From contig OU744448.1 in the NCBI GenBank assembly GCA_916610825.1, forward strand, positions 7,798,650 through 7,862,649: a DNA stretch of 64,000 nt, written 5' to 3'. Positions 471 through 64,000 of this stretch are shown here, in pieces. Position numbers and translations under genes: made by a program. The stretch comes from Haliclystus octoradiatus. Taxonomy: Eukaryota; Cnidaria; Staurozoa; Stauromedusae; Haliclystidae. A model generated the notes under the pieces. That model saw only the letters and a program-made list of their open reading frames with translations. It made no database searches and was not told where the DNA came from. Position 1 is the first letter of the stretch; every line of letters begins with the position of its first letter.

Positions 471-679
471 AAAACGTTGATTTTTCTTTCCTTCCAGAAA
501 TTCATTATCTATTTGAACAGATTTTCATTTCATTCCACATTTTTGTTCATAAAATACCAAGTATAGTTTGATTGTATCTAGATATTGATTTTGAAAGGTT
601 TTGGTTCAGATGAAGCGCATATTGCTCTTATTTATTTACGAGTTTTGTTGAATTTGAAAATTTTATAAACATTCAACAT

Positions 680-745
680 CTTCACTACGCATTTAAAATA
701 GAGGAGTGGTACGGGTGCCTTCAGTAGGGCGACACAGTCTATATT
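680..745 (+). repeat. SINE tail fragment
   Basis: This matches the 3' end of the 95-470 repeat (AGAGGAGTGGTACGGGTGCC, then TTCAGTAGGGCGAC), detached from the rest of the element. Confidence 0.5.
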
Positions 746-805
746 ACTTTTATTTTTTTGCTACACATTAATTTTCCTAGACATATAAGAATAAACACTA
801 AAAAT

Positions 806-1053
806 ATGTGACGGTTCGTGTCAGAATCAACAATGGGGGAAAAATCCAATTGTACAGTTTGTTGGTGGAAAGAAGTGGGAAATTCATTGAAAATTTAAAC
901 AAATTTTAACAAATAAAATGAGATAGAGTCGTCCAAAATGAAAACAAATTGAAGATTTAAAAATAAATTAAAATTCTAAATAAGATAGCCTAATCATACG
1001 AAACAATATCCAAAATTTGATTGAAATGTTGATTCTGACAAGAACTGTCACAT
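806..1053. mobile_element. MITE with TGTGACGGTTCG termini, copy 1
   Basis: The left end reads TGTGACGGTTCGTGTCAGAA and the right end is its imperfect reverse complement (TTCTGACAAGAACTGTCACA). TA dinucleotides abut both ends, which suggests a Tc1/mariner-type TA target. A second copy of about 240 bp, in reverse orientation, lies at 47608-47848. There is no open frame, so it is non-autonomous. Confidence 0.75.
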
Positions 1054-1349
1054 ATATTAAAAAGAAAAAGTTGGAATTTATACAAACTTGTTATTGTTAC
1101 AATTAGATAAAGATGTTTCAGTCCATGCTGGGGAGCTCCATTGAACTATTTATTGCTTTTGGCGTTCCAACTGGCAGCAGAAGAGGAGGCAGGGGCTCAA
1201 CGAGAACATTTTTCGACGTTTTATGTAATGATTTTGTTAATTGTGATCTCAATAGTGTTGTACATAATCTTAAAGTTTTTAAATCTATGAATGTAAATGT
1301 AATTAAACGTAAGAGGAACGGGTTGTTCAATTGAACAACACCGTCTACA

Positions 1350-1374
1350 AATATATATATATATATATATATAT
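1350..1374. repeat. (TA)n microsatellite
   Basis: This is about 12 TA units without interruption. Confidence 0.9.
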
Positions 1375-1578
1375 TTATTGCTTAATTTGAAGCAGCTGGG
1401 AACAGAAGGTTAACCGATAGGCAAATCATCATAGCCAATAAAAGTTAACCATTTAATGCAGAACATTAGATTATAAATCTGGAATAAGTTATTTATAGCA
1501 GAGAGATTTGAAACATGATTGTGATCTAAAACAATCCTATTTTGAGGTTAAACAATAAGTTGATTTTCAAAACATCAC

Positions 1579-1786
1579 TTAAACAAAAACACTGGAAACA
1601 TTATTGGAACAGTTAAAAAATTCCTGTGCGTCGATATTAATAGCGTGATTGTGCCTAACAAATTGCGTAAGGTCATGTTTTACAATATGCGTGTATCCGT
1701 AGGACCCACATGCAATGAGATTTATGTAAATTACAGCATAACTATTAAGGAGACTTGAATTAAATAATATTGGCAATTTCACATTC
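1579..1786 (-). CDS. Candidate terminal exon of the minus-strand secreted/membrane gene
   Basis: On the minus strand an acceptor (AAATTGCAG) is followed by 208 nt open to a TAA, about 69 residues. They include two cysteines and potential N-glycosylation sites (FNSS and NCSN), which fits a luminal protein. The frame needs an upstream exon ending in phase 2. The signal-peptide exon at 3072-3147 ends in phase 1, so at least one more exon is required. I do not recognise the family. It could be a chance frame. Confidence 0.35.
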
Positions 1787-2196
1787 CTGCAATTTAAATT
1801 TTTTATTAGCCAATGAAATTGCATTGCTTAGTTTGAGTTTGCACATAGAATTTTCAACAGGGAATGCATAGACTTTACTGGATAATAACTGTGTTCACTT
1901 TGAGATCAAGCTTATATCTGTTGGGCGGATTTTATAAGAAGGTTTATAACATTTAATCTAAAGAGAAATCATGACTAAATCAGATATGAAACCATTTGGG
2001 TTAACCACAACATATGCAAGGTGCAAGTCCTCATTCATAAAACTAAAACAGATTTAAAGGTCTGGACGATATGTTTATTGTCATAATGTATATATGTATT
2101 GTCATGCTACAGTTAGACCCATATCAGTGATTGTTTTGATAATACCGCAACACTTCAACATGTACTTCAGGGTCAAAACAAACGTTTACAAATCAC

Positions 2197-2284
2197 TATT
2201 TTGCAACTGTGAACTGTTCAATGCTGTTATTCAGAAAATCAGAAAAGGAGTCACAAATAACTTTAATCACAAAGATAACAGCGT
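2197..2284 (-). CDS. Candidate second exon of the minus-strand signal-peptide gene
   Basis: After an acceptor (GAGATTCAG) the minus strand reads on in exactly the phase left by the exon at 3072-3147. It encodes about 28 residues (DAVIFVIKVICDSFSDFLNN and on) with a hydrophobic strand, a cysteine and an N-glycosylation site. The donor is weak (TAGTGATT) and, if used, does not join in frame to the candidate at 1579-1786. Phase and composition support it; the product is not recognised. Confidence 0.4.
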
Positions 2285-3071
2285 CTGAATCTCATAATTT
2301 TTAAATGTCAATATACATGTATGTACGTTGATAGTACAAAGAAAGCAGTCTATCCAATATTAAAATTACAGGTTCTTCTTTGAAGACATGATTAGGCATA
2401 TATGCTTTAGATTTAGCGGACAAGATAATTTTTTCGGTGTGATGTGTCTGATGTGAAATTCAATGGCGAACAATGTTCATTATTGTTTTAGTAATAAGGC
2501 TATGTCAATAAGATGGATTATAGGTAACCAATCATTTCAGTACAAGTAGTCATTACCCTAGTGATGTATTCAGTTTGTTATTTACATAATACTTCTTATT
2601 TGAGATTTCAATCCTTTCGAAAATTTAGATGTCAAACAAAATTACAAGCACATTTTGTCGAGGCTGCGAAGTGCCTGTAATTGTTTAACCCTTAAAACAT
2701 CATCATTTTTGAGTTCAAAATAAACAAACTTTAAATAATCGGTAATTATAATAGTTTTGTAATTGTCAAGTAGCAATACTGAAGAATAGAATTTATCATT
2801 TGTTCGCGTGTCTGAATGTTCTCGATTTCTTAAGCAACAATATTAAATTTAAACGGGAACTGCAACATTATTTTTAAAATCTGAACATTTTTTGCTACTT
2901 TTTAAATGACTAAAGCCGAGATCATAACAATGATTAGCCCTAAATATATTGAACAAGAACACAAAACATGATTTGTGCATGTAAGTATAAACTAATCCAC
3001 AATCTTAAGCGTTTATCAATTTCTAGAAATAAGCAGCAAACTAATTAAGAAAGAAATAATAATGTACTAAC

Positions 3072-3147
3072 CTTTTTGATTTTCAGACGGTGAGTCTGCG
3101 TAGACAAGTGAAAAAAATATTGCCGCATAAATGTAACAGATTCTCAT
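3072..3147 (-). CDS. First coding exon of an unidentified signal-peptide gene
   Basis: The minus strand opens with ATG at 3147 and encodes MRICYIYAAIFFSLVYADSP and a few more residues: a basic start, a hydrophobic core of about 12 residues and a VYA|D-like cleavage site, so a secretory signal peptide is likely. The exon ends at 3072 in phase 1 before a good donor (GTTAGT). The first ATG was chosen because it starts the signal peptide directly and no upstream in-frame ATG is apparent. The gene lies head-to-head with the SRA1-like gene, 541 bp apart, and runs left toward candidate exons at 2197-2284 and 1579-1786. The protein family is not recognised. Confidence 0.65.
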
Positions 3148-3688
3148 GATTTTAATGAATATAATAAATTAGAAATATGACAACTGATATCAAACAGAAG
3201 ATAAAAATCACTCGTGATTTGCAGGCTATAACGCTTTTCCACGCTGGCTGCAGACAGACTACATCATCCGTGCATAAAAATTGTTATAAAATCTTTGTGG
3301 CACGACTCATCTCCACGGCGCCATGTTGATATCGAATCACCAATTTCCGGTTCGATCTTCATTTTGAATTGTTACTTCGAACAGGGGGTAGTTCTAAGAA
3401 TTTTGAAACAAAAATTCAATTTAATATTTAGGATTGTAGATTTATGTTGAACCAATTATTTATGATATGAAAGTATTGCAAAAATTATTAGTATTTCATT
3501 ATTCGGTTATTAATAAATAGGAATTCTTACAGAATTTCAATTTCCAATACTTCAAAAACAATGCTTTGACATTTCTTATAGAACACCCTTATCTAATTTG
3601 CATAGTTACGTCACTCGTGTTTTCTTTTAGCATAGTTGTCGATCAAGTCGATCGAAAGTGCTACGTCTTCCTTTTCCTACGAGGCATA
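3148..3688. promoter_or_regulatory. Shared upstream region of two divergent genes
   Basis: These 541 bp separate the divergent start codons of the signal-peptide gene and the SRA1-like gene. It is GC-richer than its surroundings around 3235-3345, with a GGCGCCATG block that on the minus strand resembles a YY1-type ATGGCG site. The plus-strand leader just before ATG (3661-3688) is pyrimidine-rich (CTTCCTTTTCCTAC), as in transcripts of housekeeping genes. No TATA box is obvious. That it is a bidirectional promoter is inferred from geometry only. Confidence 0.5.
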
Positions 3689-6600
3689 ATGGCTGATACT
3701 CAAGGCTCAGGTAAATTTTATTTACGCCTCTGTTTAGGTGGTTACTTTCAATGAAATAGATCAAATGATATGTCTTGCTATGAACATATACTAATTGGCT
3801 ACACAATTTTCAATTATCTCTCAACAAGCGCATCTGAATCCTTTGCAAAGTATTAAGATTGTGTCGGCAAATTTTATTTTACCGGCTTTATCATATTGTT
3901 GAATTTAACTTTCAACTGGTAATCTGTTGTGTTGGAAATCTAAATTTACTTTTATTAATATGAATATAACCTGTTATTTATGTATGGTCATTCAGAATGC
4001 AAGTATTATTGAACATTTCATCAAATACAAAAGGTTTGGTCCGTTCTAGCGTCGTGGTCTGTGTGATACCTTAATTTACGAAATATAAAGTTTTTAGGCC
4101 TAGTTTTGTTGTTAACCCGTCATAGTATATCATATTACTTAAGTATGAGCAGCAATGGTGCCTACTATACAGTAGTGCTGATAGCTGAACATCATTGATA
4201 AGATCTATGGATGGTAGGCCTATTTATATATATGTTTTCTGATGTCGAAGATTCATAGCCTAAATTATAATTTTTATATGAATTTTAAAACAATGAAAAC
4301 ATCCTGAGAACTTCCTTCAAAACAACTCATTGAATAGGGTACTGAATAGTGAATTGAGCTATTTTCAGTAGGTTCTCAATTTAAATGAGATTTTACTAGA
4401 TTTTCAATGCAATGATCAGAAGTTAGGTAAAATTTTCTAATGACTTTAATTACCTTTGTTAGTATACAATCCATTTTCAGTAGATTTTCAATAGGTGTTA
4501 CGTCGTTTTAAAAATTCATATCATTATATAATCAAAAATGTACATAGATACATGTGTGTTCAAGGTCTGGATTAATGTTATTCAATGTTATGATTCTCTT
4601 TATCGATTGATATATTTCTGTTATTTGAAACTCAACCTGTTTAGTGTAACTATAGATCCGTTACTGATGTGAACATCATGTATCAGTCGGCTATGTGTAA
4701 CCCTATTAATATTACTACTGTTAATATCACAACACACTTAATTTCACCAAATTTTCAAAACCAGTTTCTAGAATCAAACTCAACTATTTCGCTCCGGTTA
4801 ATATCACTAACCCACTTCTTATCACAATTCTGGGCTGTACCAGAGCAGTGTTATTAACGAGGTTGCACTGTATTAGAAGATAGTAGAAATAAATAGTAGG
4901 CCTAGGCATATAGCACTAGTCTGGATCACTCACATTGAGTCACATAGATGTCCATATCTTTTCTTGTAGGTCAACCTATCTACAACAGTCCTGTTTATGA
5001 CCCAAGTGCAAATCAAAGAGGATGGAATGACCCACCAAGTTTAGCCTTTGCTCAGAAATCTAGCAATGGTCCAACCGGTAGACGGATTGATCCAAGAAAA
5101 CGTGTTGCACACAATTTTAACAGCAATGGATATCCACAAGGTTTGTAAGGCACACCCAACCAATTTGTTCATAGATTCAAGTAGCTTTATGCGTCAATGG
5201 GAATGGGGAAGAATGATGGAAATTATTTTACCATTTAGATCCATATAAAATTTCGGTTCGAAATACAGTGACGAAAATCTCAGCATAGCCTGTAACGTTT
5301 CGACATGACATGAGCTATATCGAAATATCAGAACAAATTATATTCTCATTCATACTCAACTATTTCTTCAAATGATTTTTCAAGGGCGTACACATTTGTA
5401 TTATAATGTGTTACTGTTTTAATTTAGGTTGATCAAATATATGTCTGTTTGAATTTTACATCTTTTTGATGCCCTGTAAAACCCTGTAAGATTTTTACGG
5501 ATTTTATGGATTTTATGCCAACAAATTTGGACTAATTACGATTAATTTTTGAATGTTTGTTTCAAATTGGACTGGATTAGATTTATCAATTATTGCTTTG
5601 TATCAGGTTGGATTCGTATCACTATTAAAGGGTCAAACAAGACCGGCAGCCTTTGTATGAAATTTTTTGAAATTGGATATCGTAGCTTTTTCATTTACGT
5701 CATATTATTTTAGGAGTTGATGATATTTCAGCCGGGAATGATGAAACTCCACTTTTAATATTTTGTAACATTTCTCGAAAACACAAGCAAAGCAATGCGA
5801 GTTGTAATAATGATGACAATCGGGGTTTTAAATATGACATATATATGACCTTGGAACATCATTCCATGCTGAGAAGCCTGAAGCTTTATCAGAATATCTC
5901 CTTCCAAAAATATTGCGGGTTCGAAACGCAGACAAATGAACGACTGGGCACCGGTCATTAATAAAATACAGTTAGAATCAATTTTGTAGCAAACCATAAT
6001 ATCCAAACACCTACAAGCCACACATGATGCTGATATTGTTTCGATCAAGGTTCAGTAATGTCAGTGTTATTGAAATACAAAAATATAAGCTGTTGATTTG
6101 ATGTTGTCAAAATGAATCTATGTTCAATATGTCTCTTCTTTACAACAAATATCACATTCATTGATTTGTAAAAAGAAAAACAGTATCAAATGTGCACAAT
6201 TATCTACATTATGCTTTCTTTCAACAAAATTCTTTATACAATATTGCATTCTTGGTAAACAGTCTTAGCAAACCACGAAACTCTTCTTTGTAGTTTATTA
6301 CCATCGAAACACTTCTCGTGATACAGTATATTCCGGATTTCATCGCTGTGAATACTCAAAACCGAATTGGTGATGTCACAACTGGTGTTTGAAAATGAGG
6401 TTTTGAAAAAAAAACATTTTTTTCAAAGCAATTATTGCCGGTCAATAATGCCCCTTTAACATTCTTACGTGCAATTAGCCTAGGCAGGGACTTTTAAATT
6501 GGCCTACGTCTGCTCTGTGTACGGTATTTCACTTTTTAACAATCAGAAACGATCAGGTTTAATATACAAAAAGATCAACATTTACAAGATTTACTGATTT

Positions 6601-8438
6601 CTGATACCAATTAGTTACCCACAGATTAGTCATAATAATCAGCCGATTAATCGAATTTTGCAATTATTTCCCATTCAAACAGATCATTACAAATACTGGT
6701 TGTCTGACAACTCACAGATCGTAGATATGTTCATCATTTAATTCTCAGTTGAAATGAACCATTAAATATCTTACTCTGACAATTGACAATTGTAAACAAT
6801 TAGTTTTGAATAAAAATAAATGGAAATTAGTTGGCATATTAGTAAATCTGTCAGTTTTCAATAAAATCAAAAGCTTGCTGATATAGGGACCATCCATAAA
6901 GTACATACTTAGTTGTCGGGGGTGGGGAGTCCTACCAAAAGCGTACAGCTGTATACATGCCACATGGAGAGAAGGGTGTCAACCATTGAAGTGTGTATGC
7001 ATTTTAAATGTCTCTGTAGCACTGTTTGAAAAATTATATTTCGATTAATTATCAGTTTATTAATGATAATCTCAATTTTTATTGCAGAAAATTAAACAAT
7101 AAATTCATTATTAACTTTGAAAATTAGCGTTTTTCTAAAAGTAGTTGCACTTGCATACTTTCGGAAGCAACAAAGACAAAATTTACAAAAATGCATAGGG
7201 TTGGTGGTTGCAATACTTCCAGTACATACAGTAACTTCCAGTACATACGCAGTAAGGGTAAGGGGGTTGACCGAAAAGTGCACAGCGGCGTACGGGCTGG
7301 GAGTGTCAAATATTGTGACGTTTACTGAGTACATACTTGATGGATGGCTCCCAAATACATACACAACAAAGATGCTTTCTTGAAACTTAAGTTTCTTCCC
7401 ATAACTGAATTTTTAACATCACTTAATTTGGAGGATTGTTATACATAGAGGACTCTTCTAAAATCATCCAATATGAGTAAGGCTTCCCTCATAATATTAA
7501 ATGGACTGGATATATATATATATATATATATATTTGGAAAGAGACCGCTGAGCCTGGTAGCAAATCCTTTTGTAAAATGGCTATAGTCTACTAAATACAA
7601 ACATTCATTGGACCTTTTTTCTACCAGCTTCAAAAAGGAATACCAGTTTAGCTATGTTTTGACAGTTTTCTAAGGGTTTCCCTCACTTTTGAATGTGTCT
7701 CATGAGCATCAATAAAGTACACACTTTAGCACGTGTCAAACAGGATTGGCCTATGGAACTGAATCTTAAAATTTAACAGATTACAATTCTTTAACATATT
7801 ATATAATATTTTATATAATTTTATATGATTTAGGAACGTCAGCTGGTTTCACTGGTCAACAGCCACCATTAGCAACAAACAATACCCCGCAATACTGTTC
7901 GCCTACCAGTCGACTCCAAAGTAATATTATGCCAAATCCAGCACCACAACCACATATGTCACATAGTTCATCTTATCCAGTCTTATCAACTGCCGCAAGT
8001 ATACAAAGTCCTGCACATTACATGCCAATTACTACAACACAATCTATAAATAACCAAGTAACTTATAACGGTACACCCAGTTATCAAGGTAGTAATACAA
8101 ATCGACCCCCGATTCCACATCAATTTCAAGGTCAATCACCTTCGCCAAATATTGGTCAGCCGCTTCATCAATTTCAAAACTCTCCGTTTATCCCATCGCA
8201 AAATGGTCATCATGGTATTAGCAATGGCTCATTATCGCCCGCTGTTGTAAATCATCACCATTCACAATCAATGCCTAATTTACCAGGCGCAGCAATGTCG
8301 CAGTTGAAACCTACGCAAAACCAAGGACCTCCTCCTACAGATGGGTATTATGCAAAGAGAGCATCGTCAGCAGAGAATTCTCGAGAACATAGTCCAATAA
8401 CAACTGGCTTAGTTCCAAACTTACAGCCAACTGGATAG
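3689..8438 (+). CDS. SRA1-like protein without a visible SRA domain, three exons
   Basis: Exons are 3689-3710, 4970-5140 and 7834-8438. Phases match and all introns are GT-AG; the product is 265 residues. Residues 20-50 hold the motif NQRGWNDPPS followed by GRRIDPRKRVA. This aligns with the start of human SRA1 (steroid receptor RNA activator protein), which has RGWNDPP and a downstream RR..L.KRVA; the C-terminal part of SEC31 also carries GWNDPP. The rest is low-complexity, rich in Pro, Ser, Gln, Asn and His. SRA1 and SEC31 both end in a helical SRA domain of about 100 residues. None is encoded in exon 3, and I found none in the 3 kb downstream. Either the domain is lost or a downstream exon is used through a donor inside exon 3. 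The gene is head-to-head with the signal-peptide gene and tail-to-tail with calnexin. The SRA1 relation rests on the N-terminal motif. Confidence 0.7.
4646..4870. mobile_element. pogo/Tc1-like MITE in intron 1
   Basis: The ends resemble (C)AGTGTAAC... and ...GGTTGCACTG with TA outside. The inside carries repeated TTAATATYAC motifs that recur at 20147-20215 in the calnexin gene. Boundaries are approximate. The open frame 4669-4857 falls inside it and is not a gene. Confidence 0.5.
5625..6459. mobile_element. TTAA-ended DNA transposon, about 835 bp, non-autonomous
   Basis: The left end TTAAAGGGTCAAACAAGACC and the right end (reverse complement TTAAAGGGGCATTATTGACC) form imperfect terminal inverted repeats of about 24 bp, both continuing into GGCA. 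Terminal TTAA recalls piggyBac or Kolobok target sites. Smaller relatives lie at 32562-32769 and 39021-39225. The minus-strand frame at 5755-6048 shows no transposase motif I know. Confidence 0.65.
6886..7352. repeat. Inverted GGGACCATCCATAAAGTAC repeat
   Basis: The left end starts GGGACCATCCATAAAGTACA and the right end, read on the minus strand, starts GGGAGCCATCCATCAAGTAT. They delimit about 467 bp in intron 2 of the SRA1-like gene, and CGTACGC-like blocks recur inside. It is probably a MITE or two inverted copies. The overlapping frames around 7092-7383 come from this repeat. Confidence 0.6.
7510..7533. repeat. (TA)n microsatellite
   Basis: This is an uninterrupted TA run in intron 2 of the SRA1-like gene. 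Confidence 0.9.
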
Positions 8439-29613: not shown

Positions 29614-40963
<11,350 letters not shown>

Positions 40964-54700: not shown

Positions 54701-57429
54701 AATAAAGAGGGTGTTTCCAACTATAACGTATTATGCGATATTGACTGTATATCCTCCACAAACAGGGTTGGCCTGAAGCTTTTTTGTCGATATTGCTGGT
54801 TAATTGATAAATATTTTTGAAACGAGTGTGCATTTTATGGTCAAATGACATTTCTAATGCGATGAGTGGCATCAATCAATAGTATCTAGTAGTATCTAGC
54901 TCTTAGGTAGTATAGACATAGACAGTCACATCATAAGAATGTGCTGTCCCTCTTACGCTTAACATATTTGCTACACAAAAAACATCGCAAATCACGGTCA
55001 GATATAGCTGACAAAGAAACTTGTAAAAGCACTATTGATTTAGGATGTGTCTATACTATTTGCGAATACATTGCTCAATACTTCTGTAGTTTGAGCACTC
55101 TGGAATTGCACAGACTTTTTTTTCATGCGGTGAATTTTTCACCACATTGACTAACTCATCTCGACCTAGCTATAACAGGTGAAGTCACTCCTTTGTTCAC
55201 TGAGTAGTACTGATGACAGCTAATGGCTAAATACAAGTGTTTGTCTTCTTCTAATAGCTTGTTTATGGTCAAATCTTCACTTGACATTTCAGGCAAATGA
55301 GAATTCAGATACATGTAATAACAATGAGTAACACTTTCGATTTCAATGATGTCCGATGGAATAAATTTATAGCTAATAATAATATTAAGAACATCAGACA
55401 TTCATGTTAGATAGATTAAATAGTTCCGATAATCGCTTAGTCTTGAAACTATTAGTAGTAAATATGAATTTCTTGATTTTTTACTATTTCTTAATATTAT
55501 TACTAAATATAATAATTATGTTTTAATGATTTTCATATTGTCTGATGATTGCATAAAGCAAGAAAGTTTAAGTAACAGAAACGAATGCGTAGTCCTTCAC
55601 TCATCATATTATTATTATTCAATATAATAATATATATTATCTAATAGCAGTAAAAAGTGCTCACTGTCTGTCGGCAGATCAGTAAATATAAATAGGGGTC
55701 AAATATTACACATTCTGTTACTGTAACTTGAAGTTTTATGCTTTATTACGATCATGACATCCTCTTGCAAATAAATGGTTTTTCTGAAATTTTTATGGAA
55801 GCAATTTTAAATCATTAGAATAATGACTATTCAGGTAAACTCAGCCTTGACTTTATCTAAAACATCAAATGAGTACCATCTTTTGATGGCAGATGGAATG
55901 GTCCAGAGGGAATTGAATTGTGAGTAGCTGTGGCGCATCGTTGCGCATTGACAATCGATACATATCTGTAATGAAATATGTTGAAATTGATTTGCAGAGT
56001 CGCGGCTGAAATCAATAAAGATCGTTTAACATCATTGCTCTCAGCGAAAAGAGCCACTCCTCTAGAAATACAGGGGTGGTATAGGTGCCGTCGGTAGGGC
56101 GATACCATCTCAATTACCAAGTTCTACTATTAGTGAAAGCATGTCAAATTTATTGAAACATGGTTGAGTGAATGATAGAAACAGATCCAAACAGAATCAG
56201 AAAAAGTTATACTTTCGTAATAGCTGGGAATGTGGATAATAACAAATCGGGTGATATGCTTCTTGAAGGTCTGCTGTCAAAATTGACTGAGATTTAGATT
56301 TACATAATACATACATACATACATACATACATACATACATACATACATACATACATACATACATACATACATACATACATACATACATACATACATACAT
56401 ACATACATACAAAGAGAATACATCATTTATACATAGGACATTTATAGTGACATTTATCAAACCTGTAACTTGTAACTTGTACAAATCTGAGGAAAATGTG
56501 TTAACATTGCTTTTTGTAATTGAGGTTACGTTTTTATTTGTAAATTAAATATATTTACCGTACCTGAATCATACTTCGTTTTGTCTTTCAATTGAGAAGG
56601 CCATGAGAGGTCGGTTGTCCGTGTTTGATTATCTGATGCAAAACCCTTAACACATAAAATAAGATAATTACAGTGAGGAAACAGGCAAACCTGTGACAGA
56701 AGCCAGGCATGAGATCTCAATAATATGACCTCATGAAACAGGGTTTTGTATAGTTCAATACTACACAAGCTCACAAGTTCATGAACGTAAAATTGTTCAA
56801 AAACTCATGAAGTGTTAACTGTTCATGAACTATTGAGTAATTTCACGTTCATGAAGAACTGTTCATGAACAGTCACAGACAGTTCATGAAGTATTCACAA
56901 ACCAACAAAAACTGTTCATAGACTGTTCATGAACAGTCACAGACATTTCATGAAGTGTTCACGAACCAACAAAAAATGTTCATAACCTGTTCATGAACAG
57001 TCACAGACAGTTCATGAAGTGTTCATGAACCAACAAAAAATGTTCAGGAATTGTTCATGAACTCATGGATTTTTTCACAAGGGAATATTCTTAAATTAGA
57101 AATTGAAGTAATGATCACTACGGTATTTACTTCGATATGTGCCTAATACTGATTGGTTAATTATTTTGAAGCTGTCAAGCTATACTGCAGTCTTATTTTC
57201 TTGGAAAGTGTAAAAATAACACATATAAAGCATAATGGTGATTGGCATGGAACGCAATTATGAATTACCAGTGAATAACATTGCATTTTGGACTTAATTA
57301 CCTGGGATTTTAGTTGATCTCTTTGCAGCATATGGGCATTTCTTTGTTTACAATAGGCTGGGGTCCAAGGACATGCTAGTTGTCTTTTTAATTCATTAGC
57401 AATTTTACGGTTCAATAAAACAGAACTTC
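42725..57429 (-). CDS. CCDC22: CCDC22, 14 exons, N-terminus outside the recognised part
   Basis: Coiled-coil subunit of the CCC complex (with COMMD proteins and CCDC93) that works with retriever in endosomal recycling of membrane proteins. Exons (minus): 57302-57429, 56564-56645, 53939-54108, 53286-53412, 51354-51427, 50514-50603, 49059-49178, 47958-48077, 46959-47075, 46349-46450, 45058-45165, 44360-44455, 43397-43456, 42725-42919; phases all join, giving 528 residues to TAA. Diagnostic matches to human CCDC22: NRKIANELKRQLACPW; GSRFTHAEKLQFAK; ENSSQRLVNLAGQWEKRRKP; SYTKRILEIVANIKRQKDD; LSGKLDRTF; DAKKDD; ETGSIMREIRDIEEQI. Human CCDC22 is 627 residues, so about 120 N-terminal residues (the NN-CH domain that binds COMMDs) are missing. 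The first exon seen starts in phase 1, so at least one exon lies upstream, beyond the retroelements that begin at 57.9 kb, or beyond the window. The C-terminus is long coiled coil. Introns are rich in MITEs. Confidence 0.96.
42953..43050 (-). mobile_element. pogo-like MITE, partial
   Basis: CAGTGAAATCGGTATATAAC and GAGGTAGATAAATTGACCAC of the CAGTSAAACCTG family, 33 bp from the acceptor of the last CCDC22 exon. Confidence 0.6.
43850..44012 (+). repeat. HHR-family repeat with 39-bp inverted arms
   Basis: Arms 43851-43889 and 43917-43955 differ at three sites. The right arm and the following sequence to 44012 match the pseudo-LTR 60471-60565 almost base for base (GAATGTGTAGTCTTTGACTC, then ACGCTCTGTCAATCACTGGC and ATTGAGCACT). 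Between the arms, the minus strand keeps stem II, GAAAC and AAAGTCACAG of the hammerhead, but the CTGATGA core is gone. Confidence 0.75.
44562..44680. repeat. Short TTCATGAA foldback repeat, copy 3
   Basis: About 119 bp with termini CCCCTGCGAAAAACAGTTCA and TGAACTGTTTTCGCAGGGG, three GTTCATGAAC-like cores inside. Confidence 0.75.
45318..45422. repeat. 35-bp unit, three tandem copies
   Basis: Unit GCAATAAGGATTTATAACRT and 15 more bases (TTGCTTATCAGAAGA), repeated three times with 1-4 differences. Confidence 0.9.
45465..45735. repeat. TTCATGAA foldback repeat, copy 4
   Basis: AGTGAAATAATTCATAAGTT at one end and CATGAAATTATCTCACAATG at the other. The interior has at least seven TTCATGAA or near cores. 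Confidence 0.65.
46565..46690 (+). repeat. SINE body fragment
   Basis: TTGATCTGCAGTGTCACGGC and GTGGTACAGATGCCTTCGGT then AGGGCG, as in the body of the 95-470 SINE. Confidence 0.6.
47167..47317 (+). mobile_element. hAT MITE family, degraded copy
   Basis: CCAACAAAAGTTGGAATCCT with an extra AATCCTAG reiteration, then TTCATTGGTCAAACATCAAC. The right terminus is missing. Confidence 0.65.
47608..47848. mobile_element. MITE with TGTGACGGTTCG termini, copy 2
   Basis: AACGGTTCGTGTTAGAATCA on the left and GATTCTGACACGAACCGTCA then CA on the right. Reverse orientation relative to 806-1053. Confidence 0.75.
48326..48508. mobile_element. pogo/Tc1-like MITE (AGTGTAACCCGC), complete
   Basis: 183 bp with termini GTGTAACCCGC and GCGGGTTACACTG, TA on both sides. 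Relatives at 19010-19176 and 44840-44975. Confidence 0.8.
49207..49382 (+). mobile_element. pogo-like MITE, complete copy
   Basis: AGTCAAACATGTTATAACAG to TATACAGGGTTCACTG, TA at both edges, about 29 bp from the CCDC22 exon 49059-49178. Confidence 0.8.
49441..49571 (+). mobile_element. pogo-like MITE, truncated copy
   Basis: CAGTCAAACCTGTTTTGAAG and GCCACCTGTCTACAGTGGTC. The second half is diverged. Confidence 0.6.
50410..50512 (+). mobile_element. pogo-like MITE abutting a CCDC22 splice donor
   Basis: The terminus TATACAGGCTTCATTG is followed by TA and then directly by the end of exon 50514-50603. On the minus strand the intron therefore begins GTACAATGAAGCC, where ACAATGAAGCC belongs to the MITE and its TA site. 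Confidence 0.7.
50868..50936 (+). repeat. tRNA-like sequence (Ala-like) in CCDC22 intron
   Basis: GTAGGTCAGTGGCAGAGTG (A box) and GGGGTTCGATTCC (B box) at tRNA spacing. The 3' acceptor strand (CTGTGCA) does not pair with the GGGGG-type 5' end, so it is a SINE head or pseudogene. Confidence 0.55.
51041..51226. mobile_element. pogo-like MITE (CAGTCCAACTTGCTTAATATC)
   Basis: 186 bp, ends CAGTCCAACTTGCTTAATAT and GATATTAACCAAGTTTGACT then G, TA duplications at both sides, inner GGGACATTAAGCGAGGTGGG repeats. Confidence 0.85.
51810..52686. mobile_element. PIF/Harbinger-like non-autonomous transposon, 877 bp
   Basis: Termini GGCTAGGGTTATATGGACGC and 14 more bases are repeated inverted at the right end (AATTGAGTTCGGTGCGTCCA then TATAACCCTAGCC). 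TAA flanks both sides (51807-51809 and 52687-52689). A TWA duplication with GG-starting ends is the PIF/Harbinger signature. Minus-strand frames at 52079-52291 and 51847-52092 may be decayed coding remnants; no DDE motif seen. Confidence 0.85.
52525..52557. repeat. Perfect 16-bp palindrome with TGACGT
   Basis: AGCTCCGCACGTCAAG, one base, CTTGACGTGCGGAGCT, inside the Harbinger-like element. It holds two opposed TGACGT cores. Confidence 0.9.
53640..53775. repeat. TTCATGAA repeat, copy 5
   Basis: Three tandem CATTTCATGAA units (53687-53713), then GAACAGTTCATAAAA and a further TTCATGAA. Ends not clear. Confidence 0.55.
54172..54747. mobile_element. pogo-like element, 576 bp, with ATACGTT-rich ends
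   Basis: CAGTCAATATTGTATAATAC at the left and GTATTATGCGATATTGACTG at the right are imperfect inverted repeats with TA outside both. Sub-terminal ATACGTT is reiterated at least five times. No transposase frame. Confidence 0.78.
55400..55775. repeat. Cluster of HHR-family repeats in CCDC22 intron
   Basis: A decayed copy at 55420-55480 (CTTGAAACTATTAGTAGTAA then ATATGAAT), a forward copy with an intact ribozyme core at 55538-55578, ATTATTATT, and a reverse decayed copy at about 55705-55775 (minus strand AAACTTCAAGTTACAGTAAC then AGAATGTG). The layout forward - AT-rich - reverse repeats that of 63580-63830. Confidence 0.7.
55538..55578 (+). ncRNA. Hammerhead ribozyme motif, intact core, weak stem III
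   Basis: CTGATGA at 55542-55548; stem II TTGC/GCAA (loop ATAAA); GAAA at 55562-55565; cleavage base A at 55574; stem I TTGT/ACAG with one wobble. Stem III has a G-G mismatch (AGT/AGT), so activity is doubtful. Confidence 0.65.
55840..56122 (+). repeat. SINE body, copy 4
   Basis: GATGGCAGATGGAATGGTCC, GTTGAAATTGATTTGCAGAG and GCCGTCGGTAGGGCGATACC match 185-470. Frame 55857-56120 is an artefact of it. Confidence 0.7.
56307..56410. repeat. (ACAT)n microsatellite, about 104 bp
   Basis: An uninterrupted tetranucleotide array in the CCDC22 intron. The MYVC-repeat frame is an artefact. Confidence 0.97.
56755..57085. repeat. TTCATGAA foldback repeat, copy 6, with 64-bp minisatellite
   Basis: Ends CTCACAAGTTCATGAACG and TTCATGAACTCATGGATTTT then TTCACAAGGG. 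From 56861 a 64-bp unit (GTTCATGAACAGTCACAGAC...) is repeated three times with a partial fourth to 57062. Each unit holds two to three TTCATGAA-type palindromes. Confidence 0.8.
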
Positions 57430-58159: not shown

Positions 58160-58822
58160 ATAAAAACAAATATAACAAATATCAAGACAAATATCGGCAA
58201 AACCTTCTTGAGCCTCGTCAAGAAGCATTTTCCTACATCGCATATTTTTCACAAGATTTTCAACCTCAATACGATCAAAGTCAGCTACAGCTGCACACAA
58301 AACATGGATACAATCATCAAGAGCCACAACAGCAAAATACTCAACAAAGATAACATCAATGCCGCCGAAGCTACGCCGTGTAATTGCAGAGAAAAAAGCG
58401 CATGCCCGCCCAACAATAAATGCCAAATGAAAAATCTCGTTTACAAGGCAAAAGTCACAACAGAAGACAATGACGAAAAATACTACATCGGGCTGACTGA
58501 AGGGACCTTCAAAAAACGATACACACAACACAAATCGGATTTCAGACATAGAAAGCACACTACTAATACGCAACTTTCAAAGCATATATGGGACTTGAAA
58601 GACCAACACATAAAGTACAAAATCGAATGGGCGCCTTTAGCCACTGCCAGACCATACAGCAATATTTCTAAGAAGTGTCATCTATGTTTAGTCGAGAAAT
58701 ACGAAATTATATGCCCTAAAGAGTCATTGCTTAATAAAAGATAAGAATTTATCAGCAAATGCCGGCATGAAAACAAATTTTATCTGTCAAATTTCCAAAA
58801 GCATAAAACCTAACAATATCAA
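58160..58822 (+). pseudogene. Penelope-like element 3' fragment with GIY-YIG domain
   Basis: Frame open from about 58160: NIGKTFLSLVKKHFP, KVSYSCTQNM-type linker (SYSCTQNMDTIIKSHNSK), a Cys cluster CNCREKSACPPNNKC, then YYIGLTEGTFKKRYTQH (GIY-YIG core with its Arg), KKCHLCLVEKY and CPKESLLNKR. A stop at 58742-58744 interrupts the frame, which continues with ISKCRHENKFYLSNF. RT domain absent. It is about two-thirds like the 62-63 kb copy, so an older insertion of the same family. Confidence 0.85.
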
Positions 58823-58919: not shown

Positions 58920-60412
58920 TAAGTAATAATAAATAATAATAATAAATTTTTATAGCGCCTATATCATTTGCTCTAAGCGCTTTACAATATCTAAGTGTAA
59001 AAAAAAATAAATAAAAATTTACAATTAACATCATATTAGTTTCGAACTTTAGTAAAATTAAAAAGTAAAAGTAAACGCTAATGATTAATACACATTTATG
59101 TGCCTAAAATATAGTGTCAATAAAATAAAGTTGAGTTATTAACTGCCAAAAGCTACACAAAACAAATGTGTTTTCAATTTACTTTTGAACACATCTAGTG
59201 ATGCACTACATCTAACTACTTCCGGTAACTTGTTCCACAAAATAGGTGCCGCCACTGAAAATACCTTATCTCCATAGGATTTTAAATTGCTTGAAACTAC
59301 AGTTAATAAAGTTTCTGATGATGATCGAAGACAGCGTTGAGGTTTGTAAGGAGTTAAAAGTTCTTTCAAATAATTCGGAGCAAGATTATGTAAACATTTG
59401 TAAGTCAATAATAAAACTTTGAAGATGATGCGTTGCTCAACTGGAAGCCAATGAAGTGAATATAAAAGAGGTGATACATGATCATATTTGTTAGCGCACA
59501 TTACAAGTTTAGCTGCTGCATTTTGAATGCGTTGCAATTTCTTTATTAGATATTTTGGTAGACCATAATATAGGGAGTTACAATTGTCCAATTTTGATGT
59601 AATAAATGCATGAACTAAAATCTTGGTTGTCCCCATATCAAGGTACCTTCTAATTTTCGAAATACGACGTAGATTGTAAAAAGATGACTTGCAAACTGAA
59701 TTAATATGTTCAACCATTGACAAATCTTTATCAAAAATAACACGTATAAATAAATCTGTATAAGTATCTGTATAATAAATCTGTATAAGTTCAGTTTTAT
59801 CTTTGTTAAGTTTTAACTTATTAACAGACATCCAAGAATCAATTTCAGCAGCACAAGTTTCTATTTGATGAATGGCAGACTGAATTTCACCATCAACAGA
59901 GGGTTTAAAAGTAACAAATAATTGGATGTCGTCAGCATACAAATGAAATGGAATATTATGCTTCCGTAGGATATCACCAATAGGGGAAGTGTACAAAAGA
60001 TACAGAATTGGTCCGAGGACAGATCCTTGGGGTACTCCACAGTGTAGTTTTTTAATTGAAGATCTTGAATCATTTATATGCACAAACTGCTTCCGATCAG
60101 TGAGATACGATTTAAACCATTGTAAAGCTGCACCTTTAATTCCAAATCTGGATGATAGTCGTGATAATAGAATCTGATGGTCAGCAGTGTCAAATGCAGC
60201 AGACAAATCTAAAAGGAGTAGAATTACAGAACTTCGACTATCAAGTGCTCGTAAGATTTCATTTTGAACACGAAGAAGTGCTGTTTCTGTACTATGATGT
60301 TTCTTATAGGCAGACTGGAATAGTTCATTCAGGTTATTGTTATGAAGATGTTCGTTGAGTTGAAAGGCAACTGCTTTTTCAGTACATTTTGAGATAAAAG
60401 TGAGATATATGT
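58920..60412 (-). mobile_element. 5'-truncated CR1/L2-like LINE
   Basis: The 3' end has an AATAATAATAAA-type tail (plus strand 58923-58950), a stop at 59139 and a frame open to about 60405. Motifs in order (minus): FISKCTEKAVAFQLNEHL, FQSAYKKHHSTETALLRV, DLSAAFDTADHQILL (RT Asp), GVPQGSVLGPILYLLYTSPI, FHLYADDIQLF (catalytic YADD), LNKDKTELIQI, LQRIQNAAAKLV, SLHWLPVEQRIIFK, and the end WNKLPEVVRCSASLDVFKSK. This order is typical of CR1/L2/Rex-group ORF2. About 20-30 residues after LIQI are replaced by a small tandem repeat, so it is defective. The endonuclease is lost; truncation abuts the PLE pseudo-LTR at 60425. Confidence 0.9.
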
Positions 60413-60429
60413 ATGTTTTTCATTTAATA

Positions 60430-60470
60430 CTGTCTGATGATCGCATAAAGCGTGAAACTTAAAGTCACAG
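60430..60470 (+). ncRNA. Hammerhead ribozyme (type I, short stem III) in PLE pseudo-LTR
   Basis: Stem I CTGT (60430-60433) with ACAG (60467-60470); CTGATGA 60434-60440; stem II TCGC/GCGT with loop ATAAA (outer U-U, three GC pairs); GAAA 60454-60457; stem III ACT/AGT with loop TAA; cleavage after C60466. All core bases are present. Hammerheads with this short stem III are known from PLEs, where they are thought to process tandem transcripts, often as dimers. Confidence 0.82.
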
Positions 60471-60578
60471 AAATGAATGTGTAGTCTTTTACTCCATTTT
60501 ATTATTAGTATTTACGCTCTGTCAATCACTGGCATTGAGCACTATTATCTGCTGATAGACAACTAATATATATATATA

Positions 60579-60716
60579 TGATTGGCAGAGGGTAAAAGTG
60601 ACTGCCTTACAGCACCCTGTCCCCTAGCATTAGGAACAACACTAGTGCTAATTCAGCTGATGATTCCAAAGCCGGACCCTCAGACGCCCCAATGGAGGAA
60701 GATACAGATAACAATA
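60579..60716 (+). repeat. Direct repeat, PLE unit start, copy 1
   Basis: TGATTGGCAGAGGGTAAAAG to ATACAGATAACAA. Repeated at 63863-64000 with two differences. Confidence 0.95.
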
Positions 60717-61620
60717 CGGTATCTAACCGATTAAAGAAAATCCTAACAATCATCCACATTCTTGGCATATTCCATTCTGCCACTTTAACGAATCCAAATA
60801 AGAGCAAGCTCTTCCATGTAGCCTTCCAATTATTGGCTTTGAACAACAATTCCCAGGAGGAAGACTTTAAAACATTAGTCACACACAGAATCCCAGCTGA
60901 CGAGGAGCATAAATTCAGAGATGTATAATATAATTTTACAAAAATCTTATATTACATCATAGATTTTAATTTCTATCCTGTATATGGTTATGTTCTTGAG
61001 AGTATTGCAAAAACAACAATGCAGACAACCCTCAGAATACATGGACATCTTCCTGATTCTGCTAAAACCAAATTCCAGGAAACCACAACAGAAATCCTGA
61101 AAAATAGCCAACGCCAAATGATTCATGCTATATGCCAACAATTACAAGAGTGTATTGCATTGCACACCATATTGGGGAACTGGAAATTTTGTTAAAGGAA
61201 ATGACTGCAGATGATTAAACCAGATTCCTCAATCGGATTTGTATCATCAATTACAACATGGTGCAAGAAGAGCTGATTGCAAAGACAAAAAACGTTGTCT
61301 ACACGATCCATCTCTAAAATGTAACATATTCAATGCTATTGTATACGCCAATGACAACAGGCGAGTTGTAGAAGATGATCAGCAGTCAAGGCCCAGAAAC
61401 AACATCGTACTGGACGAATTCAAACGTCCTCTCTTCGAATTGCCAAATGCATTGCCAAATGAACAGTCTAGAAATGATGACAACAACAGTCATCAAAACA
61501 AGCGAAACCAACACCACAACAACCCACATGGTAGATCAAAACGTCTTTGGATGACAGGACCAAGATCCCATTTTCAAACCAAAAAACAAATCCACAAAAA
61601 AGGAGGATGACAGAACTGAG
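60690..61620 (+). pseudogene. PLE ORF1-like region, broken
   Basis: Several open stretches in different frames: 60692-60928 (MEEDTDNNTVSNRLKKI, IHILGIFHSATLTNPN), about 60950-61190 (YVLESIAKTTMQTTLRI, ICQQLQECIALHTILGNWKF), and 61239-61610 (YHQLQHGARRADCKDKKRCL, then an Asn/Gln/His-rich end SRPRNNIVLDEFKRPLFELP). They look like one upstream ORF split by frameshifts and stops. DCKDKKRCLHDPSLKC may be a small Cys cluster. I do not know its function; its position suits the extra ORF that some PLEs carry before the RT. Confidence 0.55.
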
Positions 61621-62053
61621 AAAACTACTGACAGACATGCAGACAAAATTGACAATACAAATGCGGACAAAATCGCTGATAAAACAAAATCTACCATCAC
61701 ATCAACCCTGGGTTAAATAGCCTGATAACAACACTAACAATTAAATTTACACTATCTTCGATATTTCAAAATATACAAAATAGAAATTACATCACACAGT
61801 CTCCTAATTCACAGTCTCTCACAAAACACCTCATAACAGAGCAGCCATATAGAAATAAAGGATTGTTAATGAGAAGAATAGGAAGGCGAAGAAGAAGATT
61901 GGGCGACCAGAGTAGGGAAAAAAAGAAGCTGATGCAAATTTGTTTAAATCATTAACATGGGATCAAACAGGAAAAACAGTTCATAGAACTCAATGGTACC
62001 CCTATGAAACGAGTTCATGAACACAAGGTTCATAAACATGTTCATTCATCGTA

Positions 62054-63424
62054 TTTGACATAGAAAACTTCTACCCATCCATCCATGAAAAACTCTTGGA
62101 AAGGGCCGTCACATTTGCCAAGAAATCTACACAAATCTCAGAAGAGGATTACAAAATTATTATGCACACAAGGAAATCTATCTTATTTGACAACAACGAG
62201 GCATGGATAAAAAGAGGCAGCGACAGCCTGTTTGATGTTACAATGGGCAGCTTTGATGGAGCCGAAATATGTGAACTAGTGGGCCTGTTCATATTAAGCA
62301 AATTACAAAAGATAACTGGAATCCGCAGTATAGGTTTATACAGAGATGATGGTCTAGCTGTCTTAGACAAAAAATCAGGGCCACAAGCAGAAAGGATTAA
62401 GAAAAAGATTGCAAAGACATTCATAGATCTAGGGCTGAAGATCACGATTGACACCAACCTCAAAATTACCAATTTTCTAGACGTAACATTCAACCTCAGT
62501 AATTCAACATATCAGCCGTACAGAAAGCCAGACGACCAGCCATCATATATCAACATAAAGTCAAATCACCCACCAAGCATAATAAAACACCTACCAACAG
62601 CGATCACTCAGCGGCTATCAGACCTGTCTCACAATGAAGAAATATTTGACAAAGCCAAGAAGGAATACGAGGCAGCCCTTAAGTCAAGTGGATACAAAGA
62701 CGGACTCAAGTACGTCCCGCGTACTAGCCTAAACAGGGGTAGGAAAAATAGAAAGAGGCAAATAATATGGTTCAATCCTCCATTCAACAAAAGCGTGAAG
62801 ACAAACGTCGGTAGAATATTTCTCAAACTCGTTCTAAAACATTTCCCAAAAGAGCACCCGCATCATAAAATATTTAATCTTAATAAAGTCAAAGTTAGTT
62901 ACAGCTGCACAAAGAATATGAAAGCGATCCTGACAAGCCACAACAGCAAAGTAACTAACACCCAGCAAACAGACGACACACAAGGCAACCGCTTATGCAA
63001 CTGTAGAAAGAAACCGACCTGCCCGCTGGAAAACAACTGCCTTCAAGAATGTCTTATATATAACGCAACGGTTACCACAGAGGAGGATACCGAGGGACAA
63101 AATTACATTGGCCTAACCGAAGGGACGTTTAAACAAAGATACACGCAGCATGCCTTATCATTTCGAAATAAAAAATATGTAAATTCAACTGAATTGTCAA
63201 AACTGATTTGGAAATTGAAAGAAAAAAAGAAAACTTATAAAATAAAATGGTCCGTATTATCATCCGCTATGGCTTACAGCAACACAACAAAGAAATGTGA
63301 CCTTTGCCTCACATAAAAATATTTCATTCTTAACTCAAACAAAAAACTTTTAAATAAAAAAACAGAAATGATATCTAAATGCCGGCACGAGAATAAGTTT
63401 TACTTATCAAACTTTAAAACGTAA
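62054..63424 (+). pseudogene. PLE reverse transcriptase and GIY-YIG endonuclease, RT start missing
   Basis: The first part seen is FDIENFYPSIHEKLLERAV (RT motif A with the catalytic Asp), then TMGSFDGAEICELVGLFILS (motif B region), GLYRDDGLAV (motif C, the YxDD box), TIDTNLKITNFLDVTF, IIWFNPPFNKSVKTNVG, SYSCTKNM, the cluster CNCRKKPTCPLENNC and the GIY-YIG core NYIGLTEGTFKQRYTQH, ending KKCDLCLT. A TAA at 63314-63316 interrupts the frame, which otherwise runs on through ISKCRHENKFYLSNF to 63424. RT motifs before motif A are absent: the preceding 70 bp are TTCATGAA-type repeat, so a deletion or replacement removed them. The unit is therefore non-functional as it stands. Confidence 0.85.
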
Positions 63425-63583
63425 TATAGCAATGTACAGGAACCGCCCACAATAGAATACTATAATTTAGCAGCATAGACAATAAAATAATTAACAATAG
63501 AACATCCACCAATAGAATAATCAACAATAGAATAACCTGCTTGTATGTATAGATGGTATCACTTTTATTTTTCATAGATTAGA

Positions 63584-63623
63584 TTGCCTGATGATCGCTT
63601 AGGCGTGAAACTTGAAGTAACAA
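63584..63623 (+). ncRNA. Hammerhead ribozyme, forward copy in second pseudo-LTR
   Basis: CTGATGA 63588-63594; stem II TCGC/GCGT with loop TTAG; GAAA 63607-63610; stem III ACT/AGT (loop TGA); cleavage after A63619 (GUA). Stem I pairs at only three of four positions (T-A, T-A, G-C), so it is weaker than the 60430 copy. Confidence 0.72.
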
Positions 63624-63781
63624 AAATAAATGTTTGATTTTTTGTGTTTTTCCAATTAATTTAATTATATATAGCTCTGCATTTACAAATGTCATTGAGC
63701 ACTATGAAAACAGTACAGACAACATAAGTACTATTATAAATATATATATATAATTAATAAACGAAAAAATCAGACATTCAT

Positions 63782-63823
63782 ATTTGCTACTATTAGTTTC
63801 GCGCCAAGGCGATCATCAGGCAA
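63782..63823 (-). ncRNA. Hammerhead ribozyme, reverse copy in second pseudo-LTR
   Basis: Minus strand: stem I TTGC (63823-63820) with GCAA; CTGATGA 63819-63813; stem II CGC/GCG with loop CTTG; GAAA 63800-63797; stem III ACT/AGT (loop AAT); cleavage after A63788 (GUA). All core bases are present. Confidence 0.78.
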
Positions 63824-63862: not shown

Positions 63863-64000
63863 TGATTGGCAGAGGGTAAAAGTGAGTGCCTTACAGCACC
63901 CTGTCCCCTAGCATTAGGAACAACACTAGTGCTAATTCAGCTGATGATTCCAAAGCCGGACCCTCAGACGCCCCAATGGAGGAAGATACAGATAACAACA
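63863..64000 (+). repeat. Direct repeat, start of the next PLE unit (cut by the window end)
   Basis: Matches 60579-60716 at 136 of 138 positions. It marks a second, downstream unit that continues outside the window. Confidence 0.95.

What the first reader, a model, noticed from the sequence alone, without database searches (positions are those of the whole stretch)
60430..63823. Three hammerhead ribozymes with complete cores in one Penelope-like element
At 60430-60470 (+), 63584-63623 (+) and 63782-63823 (-), CTGATGA, a stem II hairpin, GAAA and a 3-bp stem III (ACT/AGT) occur in the right order and spacing, followed by an allowed cleavage base (C, A, A). In two of them stem I is formed by four pairs. 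Known: PLEs carry type I hammerheads in their pseudo-LTRs. New here: an antisense ribozyme facing a sense one in the same pseudo-LTR.
Basis: partly seen in the sequence, partly recalled or inferred. Interest (0 to 1): 0.85.

Follow-up and report, generated by a model that had tools for sequence, protein, structure and literature searches.

The report
Hammerheads from three nested Penelope retrotransposons
The three self-cutting RNA motifs are real relics of a known ribozyme, but they sit in three different jumping elements that landed next to each other, and some sister copies in the same genome begin exactly where the ribozyme should cut.

Summary
The motifs are there as described and are not chance: 6 core matches in the window against 0.31 in shuffles, and 433 + 712 exact core matches in the same 262-Mb genome, with covarying stems I and II. 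They are the minimal type I hammerheads already known from Penelope-like elements (PLEs). The "one element, one pseudo-LTR" reading fails: each motif matches a different PLE family best, and HHR3 is a separate 83-bp antisense insertion. Inverted pseudo-LTRs are a published PLE trait; close neighbours in three partly overlapping listings were head-to-head 17, 11 and 13 times and facing 0 times. No Rfam hit was found, but clean family copies also give none. The useful new result lies outside the window. In a contig-1 census of three families, insertion starts peak 11-14 nt before the core; of 33 starts inside the motif, 7 fall exactly on the predicted cut (uniform null reached in 1 of 200,000 simulations; one family shows no excess alone). 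This suggests that most insertions copy uncut RNA and a minority copy self-cleaved RNA. Cleavage itself was not tested.

The parts
60401..60565 (+). A-like PLE pseudo-LTR fragment carrying HHR1
   Evidence: 91.5% over 165 nt to both arms of L068, 94% over 136 nt to L011
60430..60470 (+). HHR1: stem I CTGT/ACAG (4 pairs), stem II TCGC/GCGT (3 of 4), stem III ACT/AGT, cleavage base C60466
60579..61683 (+). unclassified low-copy repeat X, copy 1, between HHR1 and the PLE
   Evidence: 19 candidates, all scored; 20 match rows; among loci held it matches only the downstream flank L061
62042..63752 (+). 5'-truncated PLE (B3 family): C-terminal part of RT (YRDD by eye), GIY-YIG-like region (by eye) and 3' pseudo-LTR
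   Evidence: 98.0% to L145 over 1711 nt; similarity to L144 and L145 begins at 62042; 47% identity to a Solemya velum protein (name) with a GIY-YIG hit
63584..63623 (+). HHR2 in the B3 3' pseudo-LTR: stem I TTGC/ACAA (3 of 4), stem II CGC/GCG with U.U next to core, cleavage base A63619
   Evidence: pLTR 95-98% to L144/L145
63755..63837 (-). 83-bp antisense insertion of a B2-family pseudo-LTR fragment, from near the family's start site to the AT-rich tail
   Evidence: 98.8% over 83 nt to L217 and L221
63784..63823 (-). HHR3: stem I TTGC/GCAA (4 pairs), stem II CGC/GCG with U.C next to core, cleavage base A63788
63863..64000 (+). repeat X, copy 2 (runs on beyond the window)
   Evidence: 99.3% to 60579-60714; continues to C4:7863119
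55542..55578 (+). decayed A-like hammerhead relic
   Evidence: flanking stretch 82-85% to A loci
34819..34858 (-). hammerhead-like motif, core CTGAAGA, stem II GCGC/GCGC, stem I 3 of 4 pairs

Best explanation
The window holds relics of three different PLE families that inserted close together at AT-rich sites: an A-like pLTR fragment (HHR1), a 5'-truncated B3 element whose 3' pLTR holds HHR2, and a tiny antisense B2 pLTR fragment (HHR3). Each motif is a decayed or near-intact copy of the minimal type I hammerhead that PLE RNAs carry. Proposed mode of action in this genome: transcription starts 11-14 nt before the core, so the ribozyme occupies about the first 50 nt of the RNA (inferred from insertion starts). 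Reverse transcription starts internally in the AT-rich tail of the pLTR and runs to the RNA's 5' end (inferred; internal start shown in vitro for another PLE, PMC11167929). Extension from both nicked strands leaves one long arm and one short inverted stub, hence the many head-to-head ribozyme pairs (pattern shown; mechanism inferred). Most insertions copied uncut RNA; a minority begin exactly at the predicted cut, as expected if self-cleaved RNA is sometimes the template (pattern shown; cleavage inferred).
For: Family assignment of the three pieces and the PLE boundary at 62042. Exact core matches: A 433 places, B 712, reversed-pattern controls 0. Covariation on 31 representatives chosen by me from 95 distinct motifs: 34 cells changed on both sides against 14.1 in shuffles, score 0.290 against at most 0.102 when slid. 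Cleavage base over 116 distinct motif contexts, many of them related: A 90, T 20, C 5, G 1. Orientation: neighbours within 150 bp in the first 100 listed places were 17 head-to-head and 0 facing (A, of 433), 11 and 0 (B, of 712), 13 and 0 (B2, of 303; this list overlaps B). One long and one stub arm in 33 of 34 pairs held. Contig-1 census, all 57 + 39 + 53 listed places covered: of 111 independent groups, 48 start 40-48 nt before the cut, 17 run on into the body, 33 start inside the motif, 13 elsewhere; 7 of the 33 lie exactly at the cut.
Against: No Rfam hammerhead hit and no unusual folding energy in the three window motifs. The 10.1-11.1 pair is not a standard pair in 22 of 31 motifs, which is odd for a hammerhead. 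The B2 family alone shows no excess at the cut (2 of 29, p 0.16; 1 of 16). The uniform null ignores any sequence preference for breaks. No transcript or cleavage data. The patterns find only near-exact copies, so older copies are under-sampled.
Confidence: 0.85

Rival explanations
1. One PLE whose pseudo-LTR carries a functional pair of facing ribozymes, one sense and one antisense.
For: HHR2 and HHR3 lie in 74-nt arms, 84% complementary, 120 nt apart.
Against: The arms match different families at 95-98% and 98.8%, better than each other. 0 facing pairs within 150 bp in three listings of 100 places; one at 291 bp in the A listing, and 3 facing against 25 head-to-head within 300 bp when A and B are pooled on C1. 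HHR1 is separated from the PLE by repeat X.
Confidence: 0.05
2. The insertion starts at the cut come from reverse transcriptase stalling or microhomology joining, not from ribozyme cleavage.
For: Junctions often contain filler and microhomology (L148 is joined through GTTTGCAAAC). B2 shows no excess at the cut.
Against: The starts lie at the exact predicted nucleotide in two families with different sequences there (ACAG.., GCAAACAT..). In L186 and L188 fillers also restart at ACAG (by eye). A stall in front of a stem would be expected on its outer side, several nt away (inference).
Confidence: 0.3
3. Chance or purely decorative motif without a ribozyme past.
For: No Rfam hit and unremarkable folding energies.
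Against: Shuffles, covariation and near-absence of G at the cleavage base.
Confidence: 0.03

Closest known systems
Minimal type I hammerheads of Penelope-like elements (Cervera and de la Pena 2014; Lunse et al. 2017; neither held, known here through passages of PMC7761336 and PMC6155905)
   Same: Core, very short stem III, place in pseudo-LTRs, many dispersed copies; dimeric cleavage reported for them.
   Different: Here stem III is a 3-bp hairpin, and the pair next to the core is U.U in the listed B-type copies. Start-site and cut-site footprints were not mentioned in the passages I read.
PAc, Poseidon PLE of Anolis carolinensis (PMC11167929, section 'Main text' read in both parts)
   Same: PLE with a hammerhead at the pLTR-ORF border; both target strands cut and extended; internal start of reverse transcription; AT-rich targets; uncut RNA the dominant substrate in vitro.
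   Different: In PAc no RNA-seq reads were found beginning or ending at the cut; here some genomic insertions start exactly there. In PAc reverse transcription starts in an AC-rich stem loop; here the short arms end in AT-rich stretches (by eye).
Penelope of Adineta vaga (PMC3846280, passages read)
   Same: Head-to-head inverted pLTR, shorter than the direct ones, palindromes at the junction.
   Different: No hammerhead mentioned (0 occurrences); low copy number there, hundreds here.

Membership tests
Hammerhead ribozyme, type I | CUGANGA ... GAAA core with stem II between and NUH cleavage triplet, H not G | tested here: met
   All three window motifs; H17 A 90, T 20, C 5, G 1 over 116 distinct motif contexts
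Hammerhead ribozyme, type I | Three helices kept by compensatory change | tested here: met
   Stem I 96.0% and stem II 79.0% of cells paired, each with both-side changes at 3 of 4 pairs; stem III shows no compensatory change, so says nothing
Hammerhead ribozyme, type I | Watson-Crick pair 10.1-11.1 at the base of stem II (recalled) | tested here: not met
   No standard pair in 22 of 31 representatives, 3 of the 4 window motifs among them
Hammerhead ribozyme, type I | Rfam covariance match | tested here: inconclusive
   None in window, but none in 10 loci with clean copies either
Hammerhead ribozyme, type I | Self-cleavage | not testable with these tools
   Indirect only: 7 of 33 in-motif insertion starts at the predicted cut
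Canonical Penelope-like element | RT followed by GIY-YIG endonuclease in one ORF | tested here: inconclusive
   Pfam finds neither in the fragment nor in a 739-aa family ORF, and PDB sequences give no match. YRDD and a GIY-YIG-like stretch are seen by eye; 47% identity to a Solemya protein with a GIY-YIG hit
Canonical Penelope-like element | Tandem or partial-tandem copies with pseudo-LTRs, often with an inverted pLTR | tested here: met
   Neighbouring copies in the same and opposite direction in the tblastn list; L063 has two open ORFs head-to-head with hammerhead-bearing flanks; 33 of 34 pairs long arm plus stub
Retrozyme (animal non-LTR) | 150-450-bp tandem repeats with a type I hammerhead | tested here: not met
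   In the loci held, copies lie at PLE pLTRs or as single dispersed fragments; the one tandem array seen (L170, 79-bp spacing) lacks a complete core

The most novel reading that the evidence does not exclude
In these PLEs the hammerhead sits at the very 5' end of the transcript (RNA start 11-14 nt before the core) and trims the leader, cap included. Trimmed RNAs are sometimes reverse transcribed, leaving insertions that begin at the exact cut. The genome would thus hold a fossil record of ribozyme cleavage in vivo, in at least two families.
Probability: 0.5. Interest if true: 0.65.

Novelty: new member of a known kind. Interest (0 to 1): 0.4.

Why it matters
The window itself is ordinary for a PLE-rich genome. 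It matters because the role of PLE hammerheads is described as unknown (PMC7761336, passages), and the one biochemical study I read found cleavage dispensable for insertion in vitro and saw no RNA ends at the cut (PMC11167929). A genome with over a thousand exact hammerhead core matches lets insertion ends be used as a readout of whether cut or uncut RNA was copied. The first such readout suggests both, mostly uncut.

Tried and rejected
Rfam on the window and on clean copies: no hammerhead hit. In one search the microRNA-family matches all lie below their gathering scores, and several fall on palindromic junctions, so I ignore them; the one match above gathering is a tRNA in L041. Minimum-free-energy folding gave no support for a special stability, told as evidence against. 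The idea that HHR2 and HHR3 are two arms of one insertion was rejected by family assignment. The idea that 60579-63752 is one PLE body was rejected because relatives begin at 62042 and 60579-61683 is a separate repeat.

The start-site test was first run without gaps and with an offset wrong by one base for family B1; correct this. Some A loci were picked because one search had listed no intact core there; the bias is removed by covering every listed contig-1 place. Rows dropped before the counts: copies with identical flanks or with under 60 nt held upstream (57, 39 and 53 places gave 50, 36 and 52 distinct rows); then rows whose starts lie within 1 nt and share 80% of 30 flanking nt, and arms of one locus with starts within 2 nt, were merged (to 38, 32 and 41 groups). 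The wider sample, with part of C2 in list order and some places left out, gave 9 of 49; it counts both arms of L186. (contexts of the first 8 nt after the cut) was too unspecific to use. Retrozyme membership was considered and not met. Structure prediction and fold search were not used.

Papers: section 'Main text' of PMC11167929 (passages); passages of PMC7229834, PMC3846280, PMC7761336, PMC6155905; search listings. I saw no report of PLE insertions starting at the hammerhead cut in those, but listings show only titles and abstract starts, and the two key papers on PLE hammerheads are not held.

Full report
What was claimed. Three hammerhead ribozyme motifs with complete cores, at 60430-60470(+), 63584-63623(+) and 63782-63823(-), in one Penelope-like element, the last two facing each other in one pseudo-LTR.

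The observation. The sequence shows all three, with the stated cleavage bases. The pattern CTGATGAN{6,36}GAAAC has 6 matches in the window against 0.31 in shuffles: the three motifs, a relic at 55542(+), and two unassigned. The looser CTGANGAN{6,36}GAAA gives 11 against 4.61, reached by 2 of 100 shuffles, so the tight form carries the signal. HHR1 and HHR3 form 4 of 4 stem I pairs, HHR2 3 of 4. In all three the stem II pair next to the core is a mismatch. Rfam sees no hammerhead, but it sees none in 10 loci with clean, repeated copies either.

Why they are hammerheads by descent. The window lies in a 262-Mb, 33-contig genome, a eukaryote to judge from its size and retroelements (species not determined). 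The A-type core has 433 exact places and the B-type 712, with 0 for the reversed patterns. Among 31 representatives that I chose out of 95 distinct motifs, the hammerhead helices show 34 cells with changes on both sides (14.1 in shuffles) and covariation score 0.290 (0.172 in shuffles; at most 0.102 when partners are slid). Stem I exists as CTGT/ACAG, TTGC/GCAA and CCGT/ACGG. Over 116 distinct motif contexts the cleavage base is A 90, T 20, C 5, G 1. Against: 22 of 31 lack a standard pair at 10.1-11.1 and folding energies of the window motifs are ordinary.

Three elements, not one. HHR2's flank matches B3 elements at 95-98% (L144, L145), HHR3's piece B2 copies at 98.8% (L217, L221), HHR1's piece A-like copies at 91.5-94% (L068, L011). 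The PLE itself starts at 62042, where similarity to L144 and L145 begins. From 60579 to about 61683 lies a low-copy repeat X, found again from 63863 on. HHR3's fragment runs from near its family's usual start to the AT-rich tail and borders an (AT)n run: by sequence it is a small antisense insertion of its own.

Orientation. In the first 100 listed places of each search, neighbours within 150 bp are head-to-head 17, 11 and 13 times and facing 0, 0 and 0 times (A of 433, B of 712, B2 of 303; B and B2 overlap). Within 300 bp there is 1 facing pair in the A list, and 3 facing against 25 head-to-head when A and B are pooled on C1. Of 34 head-to-head pairs held, 33 have one arm that runs on into the rest of the pLTR and one stub in which that continuation is missing within 60 nt; in L106 both run on. 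PMC3846280 describes an inverted pLTR, shorter than the direct ones, as typical for Penelope. PMC11167929 shows a PLE protein cutting and extending both strands, with internal start of reverse transcription. Two-strand extension from one kind of RNA explains the pattern (inference).

Where insertions begin. For families A, B1 and B2 I searched for a stretch that begins 3-8 nt after the predicted cut, so that copies lacking the ribozyme are found too. Every listed place on contig 1 was covered by a fetched locus: 57, 39 and 53. After merging duplicates there are 111 independent groups: 48 start 40-48 nt before the cut (peak 44-46, that is 11-14 nt before CTGATGA), 17 run on into the body, 33 start inside the motif and 13 elsewhere. 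By eye a TTTTTCA-like stretch precedes the peak in A and B2 (also in B3; TTTTTTATCA in B1), compatible with a transcription start; no promoter was tested. Of the 33 inside starts, 7 are exactly at the cut: 3 of 7 in A, 3 of 10 in B1, 1 of 16 in B2. A uniform null reached 7 in 1 of 200,000 simulations. In the wider sample it was 9 of 49, reached in 3 of 200,000, and the cut is the commonest position between -8 and +38. B2 alone is not significant (p 0.16). In L186 and L188 junction fillers restart at the same ACAG (by eye).

How it most likely works. Shown by sequence: motif families, nesting, head-to-head pairs with stub arms, two preferred starts. Inferred: transcription from just before the ribozyme; internal start of reverse transcription in the tail; two-strand extension; mostly uncut, sometimes self-cleaved templates. 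This fits the in vitro finding that uncut RNA is the dominant substrate for PAc and adds a minority route that study did not see in RNA-seq.

Novelty. The three motifs are new members of a known kind. The facing pair is incidental. The start-site footprint is the part worth following; I did not see it in five paper searches, but the 2014 and 2017 papers on PLE hammerheads are not held and were not read.

Noticed in passing
window 60579-61683 and 63863-64000 (on to C4:7863119 and C4:7870381-7870861): Unclassified low-copy repeat X, two copies 98-99% alike flanking the PLE; relatives at 71-93% elsewhere in the genome, the 93% ones only 60 nt long.
   Followed up: partly
L061, about 520-7780 (C4:7863119-7870381): The second X copy is split by a long insert that looks like an LTR retrotransposon; read by eye only.
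   Followed up: no
window 59139-60419 (-): Open frame of 426 aa with a reverse transcriptase domain (PF00078, 1.4e-27), probably a LINE, next to HHR1.
   Followed up: no
window 58180-58800 (+): Another PLE 3' fragment, with a GIY-YIG-like stretch by eye.
   Followed up: no
window about 55426 (+): A decayed B-like hammerhead (CCGATAA core) about 115 nt before the A-like relic at 55542, same strand.
   Followed up: no
L170, C1:38701515-38701855: Five B1 pLTR pieces in a head-to-tail array with 79-bp spacing, without a complete ribozyme core.
   Followed up: no
L018, L016, L041, L029 head-to-head junctions: Palindromic ribozyme pairs give sub-threshold Rfam microRNA-precursor matches; transcripts across them would form long hairpins, a possible source of small RNAs.
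   Followed up: no
B-type hammerheads, 100 listed of 712: The position paired with the pattern's fixed U next to the core is U in the listed copies, a U.U mismatch unexpected for a hammerhead.
   Followed up: partly
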